Part shown: positions 34,759 through 42,886 of the stretch, one piece after another
Layout: each line of letters starts with the position of its first letter
Numbering within the stretch: position 1 is the first letter of the stretch
Assembly (NCBI GenBank): GCA_026708015.1
Contig: JAPOVT010000057.1
Span: forward strand, 1-64,000
From: a bacterium
GTDB taxonomy: Bacteria > Actinomycetota > Acidimicrobiia > Acidimicrobiales > Bin134
Reading direction: 5' to 3'
DNA length: 64,000 nt
Made by a program: the position numbers and the translations under genes
The notes under the pieces: model-generated
Database searches by the model: none
What the model was told of the DNA's origin: nothing
What the model saw: only the letters and a program-made list of their open reading frames with translations

Positions 34759-34947
34759 TCAATCCACCCGGATAGCCCGGGTGGGGCACCGCACTTCTGC
34801 CTCCCGCACCGCGGCCTCATGCTCCGCGGGCACTTCTTCCATCACGGCTCGGGCATAGCCCGCGTCCTCCAGCACGAAGACCTCGGGGCACAGCGCTGTA
34901 CACACGCCGTGGCCACCGCAAACGTCATCGTCCACCGACACCCTCAT
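34759..34947 (-). CDS. Small [3Fe-4S]/[4Fe-4S] ferredoxin of cytochrome P450 type
   Basis: This 62-residue ferredoxin has a single iron-sulfur cluster site: Cys10, Cys16 and Cys20 in DDDVCGGHGVCTALCPEVF and a last cysteine in VRCPTRAI. His13 occupies the position of one usual cysteine, as in a known actinobacterial group that serves P450 enzymes. Its ATG overlaps the P450 stop by one base (TGATG). It should pass electrons from a reductase to that P450. No ferredoxin reductase is in the window. Confidence 0.92.
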   Translation of the reverse strand: MRVSVDDDVCGGHGVCTALCPEVFVLEDAGYARAVMEEVPAEHEAAVREAEVRCPTRAIRVD

Positions 34948-36233
34948 CAGGAATCGGCGCCCACCGGGTTGAACTCGAGGCCGAGGAAGGCCAGTCCCCG
35001 CAGGATGTGGGTGGGCACGTAGACGAAGCGCCGCTCGCCGGGCGGACCGTGCGTCGCCTCGGACATTCGGATGTCGGCCATGCGGTCGAGGATGCGATTG
35101 AGGCTCACCCGGGCCTCGGCCCGGGCCAAGGGGGCGCCAGGGCAGGTGTGGATGCCCCGGCCGAAGGCCAGGTGCAACCGTGCGTTGTCCCGCTCGATGT
35201 CGAGGGTGTGGGGATCGGGGAACTGGTGGGGATCGCGGTTGGCCGCCCCGTTGATCACCATGACCGTGGTGCCTGCCGCTAGAGCGACCCCGCCGACGGT
35301 CACCGGGCGCTGGGTCAGGCGGAAGTCGCCCTTGATCGGGCTCTCGATGCGCAGCGCCTCTTCCACGAAGTTGGGGATCAGCGAGCGGTCGCTGCGGATT
35401 CGGCTCTGGAGCTCGGGATCCTCGGCCAAGAAATACAGCATGGTGCTGAGCAGCCGCACGGTGGTCTCGGTGCCGGCCGCGAAAAGGTTGGCGGCGATAC
35501 GCACTGCGTCGAGCACCTCGGGGGTGGAGCCGTCGGGGAAGGTTGCGGTGGCCAAGCCAGTGAGCACGTCGTCGCGGGGGTTGGCCCGGCGGTCCTCGAT
35601 GTAGTCGCTGAACTGGTTGTAGAGAAACTCGAGGGGGTTGTGGGCCATGGCGTGCTCGTCGGTCGAGCCGATGCCGTGGTCCTCGGGTCGGTGCAGGAGC
35701 TGCCGGGTGAAGTTGTCCCGATCGTCGTCGGGCACCCCCAGCAGATCGGCCACCACCAAAAGGGCGAACGGCTGGGCGAAATCGCGGATGAACTCGCACT
35801 GGCCCTGCTCGATAAAGGCGTCGAGCTGACGGTCGGCCAGCCGCCACATGAACTCCTCGTTCTCGCTCAGGCGCTTGGGGGTGATGAGCCGCATGAGCAG
35901 AGACCGGTGGGCGGTGTGGGCCGGCGGATCCATGGTGGGGAGCTGATCCGACATGGGCAGCTTGTCGCGGTGCTCGGCGATGAGACCGCTTATGTCGTCG
36001 CCCTCCAACGGCACCGGGAATCCGGGGAAGGGCCCCGACACTGCGTTGCAGGCTGAGAAGCCGTGGTTGTCGTTGTAGACCTCGATGGCCTCGCGGTAGC
36101 CGGTAATCATCATCACGTTGTGGTGGGGCTCGGGATGCACCGGGCACTGGGAGCGCAGGTGGTCGAAGTACCCGTAGGGGTCGGCCACCAATTCGGGGTC
36201 GGTGAAGAAGTTCCGGCTGTCCAGCTCAGTCAT
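34947..36233 (-). CDS. Cytochrome P450
   Basis: This 428-residue soluble P450 has the oxygen-activating I-helix motif AGTETT (about residues 253-258), ExxR at Glu292-Arg295 in EEALRIE, and the haem motif FGRGIHTCPG with axial Cys364. The family cannot be assigned from these motifs. The ATG at 36233 lies eight bases inside the end of the LivHMG fusion gene, so the P450 is translationally coupled to the transporter. A ferredoxin gene follows with one-base overlap. The order transporter-P450-ferredoxin suggests that an imported molecule is hydroxylated. Confidence 0.95.
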   Translation of the reverse strand: MTELDSRNFFTDPELVADPYGYFDHLRSQCPVHPEPHHNVMMITGYREAIEVYNDNHGFSACNAVSGPFPGFPVPLEGDDISGLIAEHRDKLPMSDQLPTMDPPAHTAHRSLLMRLITPKRLSENEEFMWRLADRQLDAFIEQGQCEFIRDFAQPFALLVVADLLGVPDDDRDNFTRQLLHRPEDHGIGSTDEHAMAHNPLEFLYNQFSDYIEDRRANPRDDVLTGLATATFPDGSTPEVLDAVRIAANLFAAGTETTVRLLSTMLYFLAEDPELQSRIRSDRSLIPNFVEEALRIESPIKGDFRLTQRPVTVGGVALAAGTTVMVINGAANRDPHQFPDPHTLDIERDNARLHLAFGRGIHTCPGAPLARAEARVSLNRILDRMADIRMSEATHGPPGERRFVYVPTHILRGLAFLGLEFNPVGADS

Positions 36234-41339: not shown

Positions 41340-41383
41340 CCCGTCAGATGGGCCAACCGCGCCGTCAGTTCAATGCAGTTGGC

Positions 41384-42886
41384 CTATTGGTCGAGCATCA
41401 TGCGAGCGCCGTCGACCTCCACCCAACAGGCGCAGTCGGCTCGATACTCCTTGAGCGTGACTGTATCAGGGGCGTCGTGCTTTGTGGGGCTCCAAGAGCC
41501 GGTGATGTCGCCGAGACGGTAATCGGTGAGCGACTCGAAGCCCTGGATGAGCGTGGTCTGGTTCACGGTGCCGTAAGTCTCCTGAGACCAGTTGGCCGCC
41601 GCCTCCAAGTTCTTGATGAACAGGCAGGTGCTGCCCACCGCACTCCAGGCGTCTTCGTTTTCCTCAGGGTCGTAGGAGATGCCGGTGACCTCGGTGAATA
41701 CGGCATTGCACTCGATAGTGTGCTCGTCGGGGCTCAGTCGGTCGAGTCCGTAGCTCAGCCCGTACAGGCCGTAGAAAACGGTGGGGTCGGGGTTCCGCTG
41801 ATACACCGCCTGGGCTACTGAGGCAAACACCAGATTTTCGATATCGCTGACCAGCCACTGTGGCCTGTAGTCATCCTGAGCTCCCAGGTAAACCGCGATC
41901 CCGAACGGCGAGGGAGGCACCAGGGAGAACAAGGTGTCCACGTCGGCGGCTTGCATGCGCTCCAAGCCGATGTCCACCTGAGAACAAGTAGTGCCTTGGC
42001 AGGGCAGGGCTACTTCGTCGGCCAGCTCGTATCCGGCGTTGGCCAATGCCGCTCTGAGCACGTCAGCAGCCACCTCGTGCTCGCCGATGTCGCCTCGCAT
42101 CAAGCCGAGCGTGCGGCCCTCGAGCAGGCCCTGGGTTTCGGCCACGGCAGGCCAAGCCCCGACCAGCCGCTCGGTGGTCATGGCCTGGGAGAACAGCCGC
42201 CCGTTGGACCGGTCGTATATCTCCTGGGGCAGGATGCCCGACAGCATGTAGGCGATCCGCTCATGGCCCTCGGTGGCGCAGAGCACAGTCTCGGCCGTCA
42301 CCCCGCCCACGAAGTGGACAATGGCCACCTGGTCGTCCTCGGTGGCGGCGATGCAGGCGGCCTGCTGGTCGGTGGCCGACGCCCCCGGCGGATAGGGGTG
42401 GAACACGATTTCGATGTTGCGTTCGCCCGCGCCTCCTCGGGCGTTGACCTGCTCGGCAAAGACCTCGTAGTTGCGAGGTATGTCGCCGGTGTCGGGGAGG
42501 ATGCCCGCTTCTTCAAGCTGCTTGCTATCGCTGCGCAAGATGGCGACCTTGATGGAGTTGTCGGTGATGCCCACTGTGGATCCCTCGGGCACCGGGATTG
42601 GGGTGGGAGCTTCCGTCGGCTCGGGTTCGGGGGCCGGCTCATCCGCGGGCTCATCGGCGGGCTCGTCGGCCGGTTCTGGAGCGGGCTCATCCGCGGGTTC
42701 GGGGGCCGGCTCGTCGGCAGGCTCAGGTTCGTCGGCGGGTTCCTCGGCCGGGGCCGGAGCGCTGGTGGGCGCCGGTCCGGCAGCCGGAGCGTCGTCGGGA
42801 TCCTCCGAACTGCTGCACGATGCTGCGACCAGCGCAAATACCGCGACCAGGACGAATACGAGATTGCGCCACTTTGTGCGATTCAT
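41384..42886 (-). CDS. Lipoprotein substrate-binding protein of transporter copy A (SBP 3)
   Basis: This 500-residue lipoprotein has lipobox LVAASC near residue 24, followed by about 70 residues built of irregular PADEP and PAPEP repeats. The binding domain begins near GSTVGITDNSIKVAIL and has two extra cysteines in LPCQGTTCSQ and two in ADCACWVE at the end, suggesting disulfide bonds. The ATG at 42886 has a GGGGG ribosome site. It is the first gene of the operon SBP-MFS/LivF-LivHMG-P450-ferredoxin. Its C-terminal lobe is less similar to SBPs 1, 2 and 4 than these are to each other. Confidence 0.88.
   Translation of the reverse strand: MNRTKWRNLVFVLVAVFALVAASCSSSEDPDDAPAAGPAPTSAPAPAEEPADEPEPADEPAPEPADEPAPEPADEPADEPADEPAPEPEPTEAPTPIPVPEGSTVGITDNSIKVAILRSDSKQLEEAGILPDTGDIPRNYEVFAEQVNARGGAGERNIEIVFHPYPPGASATDQQAACIAATEDDQVAIVHFVGGVTAETVLCATEGHERIAYMLSGILPQEIYDRSNGRLFSQAMTTERLVGAWPAVAETQGLLEGRTLGLMRGDIGEHEVAADVLRAALANAGYELADEVALPCQGTTCSQVDIGLERMQAADVDTLFSLVPPSPFGIAVYLGAQDDYRPQWLVSDIENLVFASVAQAVYQRNPDPTVFYGLYGLSYGLDRLSPDEHTIECNAVFTEVTGISYDPEENEDAWSAVGSTCLFIKNLEAAANWSQETYGTVNQTTLIQGFESLTDYRLGDITGSWSPTKHDAPDTVTLKEYRADCACWVEVDGARMMLDQ

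What the first reader, a model, noticed from the sequence alone, without database searches (positions are those of the whole stretch)
34759..42886. Transporter copy A is in one coupled unit with a P450 and its ferredoxin
Gene order is SBP 3, MFS-LivF, LivHMG, P450, ferredoxin, with gaps or overlaps of 44, 2, -8 and -1 bases. This suggests that the imported compound is a P450 substrate, most likely hydrophobic. Together with the Spinster-like MFS domain, a lipid, terpene or steroid is a better guess than an amino acid.
Basis: partly seen in the sequence, partly recalled or inferred. Interest (0 to 1): 0.72.

Follow-up and report, generated by a model that had tools for sequence, protein, structure and literature searches.

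The report
Importer operon with its own P450
In a group of uncultured actinobacteria, genes for a nutrient importer of unusual build are joined in one operon to an oxygen-inserting enzyme (a P450) and its electron carrier, which suggests that the cell takes up a greasy, ring-shaped compound and oxidises it at once.

Summary
The order is conserved. Of 22 genomes of the genus, 13 carry this transporter copy; 12 of the 13 carry the P450 directly behind LivHMG, 10 of them on one contig with MFS-LivF. None of the other 9 has this P450. One of those 9 keeps a scar: a 67-base P450 scrap and the 5' end of SBP 3. The P450 belongs to CYP150 (56% identical to M. marinum CYP150A6), and the ferredoxin is of the histidine type that serves CYP150A5. 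Two unrelated Liv-type operons in the same genome also end in a P450. A hydrophobic cyclic substrate is plausible: CYP150A5 oxidises beta-ionone, related CYP150 genes sit beside KstD-like, Rieske and Baeyer-Villiger-type genes, and the MFS domain folds like Spinster lipid carriers. It is not shown. The SBP fold also matches binders of aromatic acids, leucine and urea, and one genome keeps the transporter without the P450. Verdict: a real, conserved import-and-oxidise operon; substrate class inferred; a new variant of a known kind.

The parts
41384..42886 (-). SBP 3: lipoprotein-type solute-binding protein with an acidic/proline repeat linker and a LIV/HAAT-type (PBP type 1) core
   Evidence: model of the core pLDDT 90.6; fold matches
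39138..41339 (-). MFS-LivF fusion: Spinster-like MFS domain (about residues 54-477) followed by a LivF-type ATPase (about 496-727)
   Evidence: model pLDDT 84.8; VIA-align SPNS2 Z 39.3
36226..39135 (-). LivHMG fusion: two LIV-type permease domains and a LivG-type ATPase with the BCA_ABC_TP_C tail
34947..36233 (-). Cytochrome P450 of the CYP150 family (428 aa); Shine-Dalgarno-like AGGAG inside the end of LivHMG; overlaps LivHMG by 8 bases
34759..34947 (-). 62-aa ferredoxin with the CXXHXXC...CP motif; its ATG overlaps the P450 stop (TGATG)
   Evidence: motif class from PMC6237146
42887..42961 (.). Intergenic stretch between SBP 3 and the divergent PhyH gene, the likely promoter region
   Evidence: function inferred
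42962..44194 (+). Divergent PhyH-family (phytanoyl-CoA dioxygenase-like) gene, neighbour in most relatives that carry the block; kept in G002 and G014, which lack the block
34675..34752 (+). tRNA-Arg(ACG), convergent, 6 bases beyond the ferredoxin stop; marks the edge of the block in the two genomes examined that lack it

Best explanation
The five genes are one import-and-oxidise operon. SBP 3, anchored outside the membrane, captures a compound and gives it to a LIV-type (HAAT) ABC importer made of two fused proteins, LivHMG and MFS-LivF. The imported compound, or something made from it, is hydroxylated by a CYP150-family P450 that receives electrons from the co-translated [3Fe-4S]-type ferredoxin; the ferredoxin reductase must come from elsewhere in the genome. 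The substrate is most likely a hydrophobic cyclic compound (terpenoid, steroid-like or an aromatic relative), perhaps from a sponge host. The MFS domain is most likely a working secondary carrier tethered to the importer's ATPase, either a second entry route or an outlet for a product. SHOWN: gene content, order, overlaps, conservation in the genus, a deletion scar, family of the P450, ferredoxin motif, predicted folds. INFERRED: one transcript, direction of transport, that the P450 acts on the imported compound, substrate class and source, role of the MFS domain.
For: (1) 13 of 22 genus genomes have the copy-A MFS-LivF at 94% identity or more. In 12 of the 13 the CYP150 orthologue (87-100% identity) starts at the end of LivHMG: in 10 on one contig with MFS-LivF, in 2 (G005, G017) behind a copy-A LivHMG piece on another contig. 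None of the 9 genomes without the transporter has that orthologue (Fisher p 2e-5, which ignores relatedness). (2) G014 and G002 lack all five genes at the site between tRNA-Arg and PhyH; G014 keeps a 67-base P450 scrap and the SBP 3 5' end: the block was there and was lost. (3) P450: 237 of 424 residues identical to CYP150A6. CYP150A5 of M. marinum with its His-type Fdx8 makes 4-hydroxy-beta-ionone (PMC6237146, passages). (4) CYP150 kin outside the genus sit with a KstD-like gene (788.4 bits against a 789 cut-off), Rieske, TauD, SDR, amidohydrolase and FMO/Baeyer-Villiger-type genes; a phenylacetone/steroid-monooxygenase-type gene lies near the block. (5) MFS model: SPNS2 Z 39.3 over 395 residues, SPNS1 with LPC Z 38.2. 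(6) Two other Liv-type operons of this genome end in a different P450 (gaps 14 and 36 bases); one is kept in G007 and G014.
Against: G020 keeps the transporter but not the P450 or ferredoxin; an SDR follows LivHMG instead, with a Rieske-type fragment, SnoaL and luciferase-like genes on the other strand. Copies B, C and D of the transporter in the own genome have no P450 beside them. CYP150 kin outside the genus (3 of 38 order genomes) have no such transporter. The SBP fold neighbours do not single out a hydrophobic ligand. The Spinster-type TM4 glutamate is missing in all 43 aligned fusions. The genome has about 32 P450 genes (33 matches), so one near a transporter is not rare in itself: with strand and side ignored, Liv-P450 nearness is not above chance (P 0.20 and 0.36). 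No 3-ketosteroid dehydrogenase match in the genus reaches the curated cut-off (0 of 22).
Confidence: 0.5

Rival explanations
1. Aromatic-acid version: the importer brings in a small aromatic or phenolic acid, as many LIV-type binding proteins do, and the P450 hydroxylates or demethylates it. The hydrophobic-lipid reading is then wrong, though import and oxidation are still coupled.
For: The nearest solved structures of the SBP 3 model include binders of 3-hydroxybenzoate (4q6w, Z 29.6, the top row), 4-hydroxybenzoate, vanillic, coumaric and caffeic acids by their titles. CYP150 genes have been linked with pyrene degradation by PCR presence (PMC10301208, passages).
Against: Rows within 1 Z unit include leucine binders, so the ranking does not choose a ligand. 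SBP 3 finds no solved relative by sequence, even with a 15-row profile. The Spinster-like fold and beta-ionone turnover by CYP150A5 point to bulkier, less polar compounds.
Confidence: 0.2
2. Passenger: the P450 and ferredoxin use the transporter's transcript but act on something unrelated. The operon reflects expression under the same condition, not a shared substrate.
For: G020 keeps the transporter without the P450; most fusions of this kind have no P450 beside them (P450 found in 17 of 95 sequences searched, duplicates and one locus chosen for its P450 included); the genome is rich in P450s.
Against: The 8-base overlap is conserved, the block is absent as a unit in two genomes, one with scars, and three unrelated Liv-type operons of one genome end in a P450 or P450 plus ferredoxin. 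Same-strand downstream P450s exceed circular-shift expectation in two complete genomes: 3 of 22 LivF loci against 0.62 expected (P 0.018) and 2 of 14 against 0.29 (P 0.04).
Confidence: 0.18
3. Reassimilation or exchange loop: the module recovers a compound that the cell or its neighbours excrete during catabolism, with the ABC part taking it up and the MFS part exporting the hydroxylated product. It would work like CamABCD/CamM of Rhodococcus jostii, but with both carriers in one operon.
For: A review states that an ABC transporter (camABCD) and an MFS carrier (camM) take up cholate metabolites in RHA1 (PMC8399759, passages). Here an MFS domain and an ABC importer are physically joined. The MFS charged motif is intact: Asp119 in 43 of 43, Arg123 in 43 of 43, an acid at residue 71 in 43 of 43.
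Against: The Cam genes were not fetched, so relation to them is untested. Direction of the MFS domain is unknown. MFS-LivF copies without any P450 are the rule.
Confidence: 0.12

Closest known systems
LIV-type / HAAT ABC importers (LivFGHM with LivJ/LivK)
   Same: All four domains and a PBP type 1 binding protein are present.
   Different: LivF is fused behind an MFS domain; LivH, LivM and LivG are one chain; SBP 3 aligns with E. coli LivJ only over 88 columns at 74.7% probability.
CYP150 family P450s with CXXHXXC ferredoxins (CYP150A5/Fdx8, CYP150A6 of Mycobacterium marinum)
   Same: 56% identity to CYP150A6; His-type ferredoxin next to the P450, as in Fdx8/CYP150A5.
   Different: Here the pair is the tail of an importer operon. 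In the passages read, the M. marinum ferredoxin genes are described only as lying near P450 genes.
Spinster carriers (SPNS1, SPNS2)
   Same: Best fold match of the MFS domain (Z 38-39 over about 400 residues), profile E 3e-20 to SPNS1, conserved motif-A charges and an acid in TM1.
   Different: Fused to an ABC ATPase; the TM4 glutamate of Spinsters is Lys, Gln, Ala or Leu in 43 of 43.
CamABCD plus CamM of Rhodococcus jostii RHA1 (cholate metabolite uptake)
   Same: An ABC and an MFS carrier serve one catabolic programme (PMC8399759, passages).
   Different: There the two carriers take up different metabolites; here the MFS domain and an ATPase are one protein. Sequence relation not tested.

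Membership tests
LIV-type / HAAT ABC importer | Two BPD_transp_2 permease domains and LivG/LivF-type ATPases | tested here: met
   BPD_transp_2 in two stretches, ABC_tran and BCA_ABC_TP_C in LivHMG; ABC_tran with UrtE/LivF as best models in MFS-LivF, though below the equivalog cut-offs
LIV-type / HAAT ABC importer | PBP type 1 binding protein | tested here: met
   Peripla_BP_6 7.2e-7, just under the curated cut-off; fold model matches this class, Z up to 29.6
LIV-type / HAAT ABC importer | Binding of branched-chain or other amino acids by the SBP | not testable with these tools
   E. coli LivJ aligns with SBP 3 only over part of one lobe, so the contact residues could not be mapped
CYP150 | More than 40% identity to a named member (family), more than 55% (subfamily); thresholds recalled | tested here: met
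   237 of 424 aligned residues identical to CYP150A6, 535 bits; next PDB sequence 179 bits
CYP150 | P450 heme-cysteine loop and I-helix motif (motifs recalled) | tested here: met
   FGRGIHTCPG and AAGTETT read in the translation
CXXHXXC(X)nCP [3Fe-4S] ferredoxin | The motif, small size, gene beside a P450 | tested here: met
   CGGHGVC ... CP, 62 aa, overlapping the P450; class described in PMC6237146. The cluster type itself was not tested
Spinster family | Spinster-like fold and motif-A charges | tested here: met
   SPNS2/SPNS1 are among the top VIA-align rows; Asp119 and Arg123 in 43 of 43
Spinster family | TM4 glutamate of the GxGEAxY segment, seen in SPNS1 and SPNS2; its importance is recalled | tested here: not met
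   Lys 20, Gln 18, Ala 4, Leu 1 of 43. It is therefore described as Spinster-like, not filed as a Spinster
CamABCD/CamM | Sequence homology and cholate-metabolite uptake | not tested
   Only passages of a review were read; the genes were not fetched

The most novel reading that the evidence does not exclude
A two-engine, single-purpose intake module: an ATP-driven LIV-type importer whose second ATPase carries a built-in Spinster-like secondary carrier, wired by translational overlap to its own P450 and ferredoxin. Imported cyclic host lipids (sterols, hopanoids or terpenoids) would be hydroxylated on arrival, with the MFS domain either co-importing them or clearing the hydroxylated product. 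Liv-type operons of this genus would have acquired private P450s several times, making 'import, then oxidise' a general feeding strategy of these bacteria.
Probability: 0.27. Interest if true: 0.78.

Novelty: new variant of a known kind. Interest (0 to 1): 0.58.

Why it matters
Uptake of steroids, terpenoids and similar compounds by bacteria is poorly understood; a review of bile-acid degraders calls uptake systems 'still largely unknown' (PMC8399759, passages). An importer that is genetically tied to a P450 gives a direct handle: the binding protein and the P450 can be made in E. coli and screened against the same compounds, so each tests the other's substrate. The MFS-LivF fusion occurs in many Acidimicrobiales and in some Frankiaceae and Streptomycetaceae, and no description of it was found in the searches made. 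It also raises the question of how a secondary carrier and an ABC ATPase work in one chain. If these are sponge symbionts, it would point to a concrete exchange of lipids between host and bacteria.

Tried and rejected
Mobile-island reading: the block ends 6 bases from a tRNA-Arg, a common integration site. Rejected: the direct-repeat search of 34400-43100 listed no repeat joining the tRNA end to the SBP 3 end (20 of 28 families shown), the block is conserved in place across the genus, and G014 has a deletion scar, so loss explains at least that absence.

Reading the ligand from SBP sequence: no solved relative by single sequence (the one hit was in the repeat linker) or by profile; comparison with E. 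coli LivJ covered too little. Left open.

Steroid catabolism test: NF009478 matches 17 of 22 genus genomes at 1e-60, none over the cut-off (best 386 against 789 bits). Inconclusive, not counted as support.

Promoter and terminator scan: 0 sigma-70-like sites against 0.8 expected, and 8 terminator-like sites against 4.1 expected, seven of them inside genes of the block and one (43017-42998) upstream of SBP 3. Such consensus scans say little here and were not used.

The first gene caller (greedy longest ORF) hid P450 genes behind antisense ORFs; it was replaced by tblastn.

Dropped rows: the tree left out 1 short and 5 duplicate rows of the 102 found. In one search only LivF matches with E of 1e-35 or better were used (22 of 38 rows for G007 and 14 of 25 for G014), and P450 fragments were merged to 40 from 46 and 30 from 32 rows. 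G000 was left out of that test because its genome is in 67 contigs.

Papers: searches for MFS-LivF fusions gave nothing on such a fusion. Searches on sponge Acidimicrobiia, hopanoids and the symbionts' names gave context only; the paper that characterised novel sponge Acidimicrobiia (Nguyen 2023) was seen only as a reference.
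Full report
1. What is there. On the minus strand the window holds, in order of transcription, SBP 3 (41384-42886), an MFS-LivF fusion (39138-41339), a LivHMG fusion (36226-39135), a P450 (34947-36233) and a 62-residue ferredoxin (34759-34947). The P450 has its own AGGAG inside the last codons of LivHMG, and the ferredoxin starts in the P450 stop codon (TGATG). Six bases beyond the ferredoxin stop lies a convergent tRNA-Arg, and upstream of SBP 3 a divergent PhyH-family gene.

2. Conservation. The genome (G000, 3.5 Mb, 67 contigs) holds four MFS-LivF fusions; only copy A has a P450 next to it. Of 22 genomes of the genus, 13 carry the copy-A fusion at 94% identity or more, and 12 of these 13 carry a P450 of 87-100% identity directly behind LivHMG. 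In 10 the same contig shows MFS-LivF, LivHMG and P450; in G005 and G017 the P450 follows a copy-A LivHMG piece on another contig. The 13th, G020, has an SDR after LivHMG, then a luciferase-like gene, a SnoaL gene and a Rieske-type catalytic fragment on the other strand; its only CYP150-like match, 77% identical, lies on another contig with a Baeyer-Villiger-type gene. None of the 9 genomes without the transporter has the orthologue; G001 has a 75% relative. Fisher's test gives p 2e-5, but genomes of one genus are not independent. The LivHMG/P450 overlap is 8 bases in 9 of 12 loci tried; the other three were not readable by the script. P450-ferredoxin spacing is -4, -1 or +2 in the 10 of 12 loci read. 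In L041 a second, unrelated P450 (30% identical) follows the ferredoxin.

3. Loss as a unit. G014 and G002 have the flanks, with tRNA-Arg on one side and PhyH on the other, but not the five genes. In G014 a 67-base piece of the P450 (85% identical) and the first part of SBP 3 remain, so the block was present and was deleted. In G002 the gap is clean. These may be two losses or one loss that went further. PhyH stays in both, so it is a neighbour rather than a member.

4. The P450 and ferredoxin. The P450 is 237/424 = 56% identical to CYP150A6 of Mycobacterium marinum (535 bits; the next solved sequence scores 179). The ferredoxin has the CXXHXXC...CP motif. In M. marinum the gene for such a ferredoxin (Fdx8) lies by CYP150A5; together with FdR1 they turn beta-ionone into 4-hydroxy-beta-ionone (PMC6237146, passages). 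CYP150 presence has been suggested to explain pyrene degradation in strains lacking nid genes, on PCR and genome evidence (PMC10301208, passages).

5. Company kept by CYP150 elsewhere. In 3 of 38 other genomes of the order a CYP150 relative passes 1e-80; none of their loci shows the transporter. In G024 one copy overlaps a gene that scores 788.4 bits on the 3-ketosteroid dehydrogenase model NF009478 (cut-off 789) and matches solved KstD proteins. Two others, on one contig of G024, sit with Rieske, TauD, SDR, amidohydrolase and FMO-type genes. In the genus, the flavin monooxygenase near the block is of the phenylacetone/steroid monooxygenase type (617 and 607 bits, tested on the G020 copy), and relatives L035-L038 have SDR, CoA-transferase III and amidohydrolase genes downstream (Pfam run on L035 and L038 only). 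This is guilt by association: such enzymes are common near P450s.

6. The transporter. The fusion pair MFS-LivF + LivHMG is widespread: an MFS-only model hits 61 of 248 genomes of the order at 1e-60, mostly in open frames of 690-850 codons. A scan of named genomes gave 78 loci, all Actinomycetota where the record says so, most from Acidimicrobiia, with Parafrankia, Pseudofrankia, Embleya and Yinghuangia among them. In the tree, copy A of the genus groups with L062 and L064 (support 100). L064 has a P450 about 2.9 kb away on either side of its SBP-MFS-LivHMG genes but none in the operon; L062 shows none on its 7.3 kb. The MFS-LivF model (pLDDT 84.8) has an MFS part whose best structural matches are SPNS2 (Z 39.3, 3.3 A over 395 residues) and, tied with other carriers, SPNS1 with a lysolipid (Z 38.2); Foldseek itself ranked ATPase domains first. 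Asp119 and Arg123 are invariant in 43 sequences and residue 71 is Asp or Glu in all 43, but the Spinster TM4 glutamate is absent in all 43. The SBP 3 core model (pLDDT 90.6) is a LIV-type binding protein; its best matches bind 3-hydroxybenzoate, leucine, 4-hydroxybenzoate, urea and, by title, fatty acids, with near-equal scores. The fold does not decide the ligand.

7. A recurrent pairing. The own genome has 33 P450 matches, and two more Liv-type operons in it end in a P450: on C2, SBP-LivHM-LivG-LivF-P450 with a 14-base gap; on C63, LivH-LivM-LivF-LivG-SBP-P450 with a 36-base gap. These P450s are 25-30% identical to CYP150. The C63 type is intact in G007 and G014; the C2 type is present in G007 with about 3 kb between LivF and P450. 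In G014 a copy-D-type fusion has yet another P450 downstream. In the two single-contig genomes, same-strand P450s within 5.5 kb downstream of LivF number 3 of 22 (0.62 expected, P 0.018) and 2 of 14 (0.29 expected, P 0.04); with strand and side ignored there is no excess (4 of 22, P 0.20; 2 of 14, P 0.36). The excess is modest and rests on few loci. The tight gaps and the conservation carry more weight.

8. Setting. The named relatives are mostly MAGs of Acidimicrobiia; one more distant carrier of the fusion is Candidatus Poriferisocius, of the family Candidatus Hopanoidivoransaceae. That several of these MAG series come from sponges is recalled; no call shows it for this genus. I could not read the paper that characterised sponge Acidimicrobiia (it is cited in PMC12263773, passages). 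Sterol-synthesis clusters with an ERG24-type reductase occur in sponge symbionts, Acidimicrobiia included (PMC9531527, passages), and the window has an ERG4/ERG24-family gene 1.1 kb from the block. Steroid degraders are enriched in some sponges (PMC5790920, passages). These facts make a sterol, hopanoid or terpenoid substrate reasonable; they do not show it.

9. Verdict. The operon and its conservation are solid. That importer and P450 share a substrate is likely. That the substrate is hydrophobic is more likely than not. The architecture is a new variant of LIV-type importer, not a new kind of system.

Noticed in passing
L149 (G000:C2:9000-26000) 9126-15515; L150 (G000:C63:2500-15500) 1719-8521: Two further Liv-type ABC operons of the same genome with a P450 as last gene (gaps 14 and 36 bases), with P450s only 25-30% identical to CYP150.
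   Followed up: partly
window 42962-54504: Copies A and B of the MFS-LivF transporter lie near each other, with PhyH, a Y_phosphatase3 gene and another SBP between them; copy B is followed by a second Y_phosphatase3 gene, an RpiR-type regulator and an SDR. Much of the arrangement recurs in relatives (L058, L061, L122).
   Followed up: partly
window 30698-33698: A flavin monooxygenase whose G020 relative (90% identical) is of the phenylacetone/steroid-monooxygenase type, and a divergent ERG4/ERG24 (sterol reductase family) gene, lie about 1.1 kb beyond the ferredoxin end; the pair is found in several relatives and the flavin gene is fragmentary in G014.
   Followed up: partly
window 42612-42743: A 12-base repeat array codes an acidic/proline (EPADEPA-type) linker between lipid anchor and core of SBP 3; its length differs between orthologues.
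   Followed up: no
window 34675-34759: The operon ends 6 bases from a convergent tRNA-Arg gene, so read-through would run antisense into the tRNA; no terminator-like site was found there.
   Followed up: no
L135 (G014:C1:706500-723500) 2834-9593: A D-type MFS-LivF/LivHMG pair in G014 has a different P450 about 110 bases downstream on the same strand; the D-type pairs of the other genomes examined lack it there.
   Followed up: partly
L144 (G020:C161) 1-2400: The one genome that keeps the copy-A transporter without the P450 has an SDR in its place and a Rieske oxygenase fragment, SnoaL and luciferase-like genes nearby.
   Followed up: partly
SBP 3 core, alignment A3: The SBP family has several invariant cysteines, so disulfides are likely, and no solved relative was found by sequence.
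   Followed up: no
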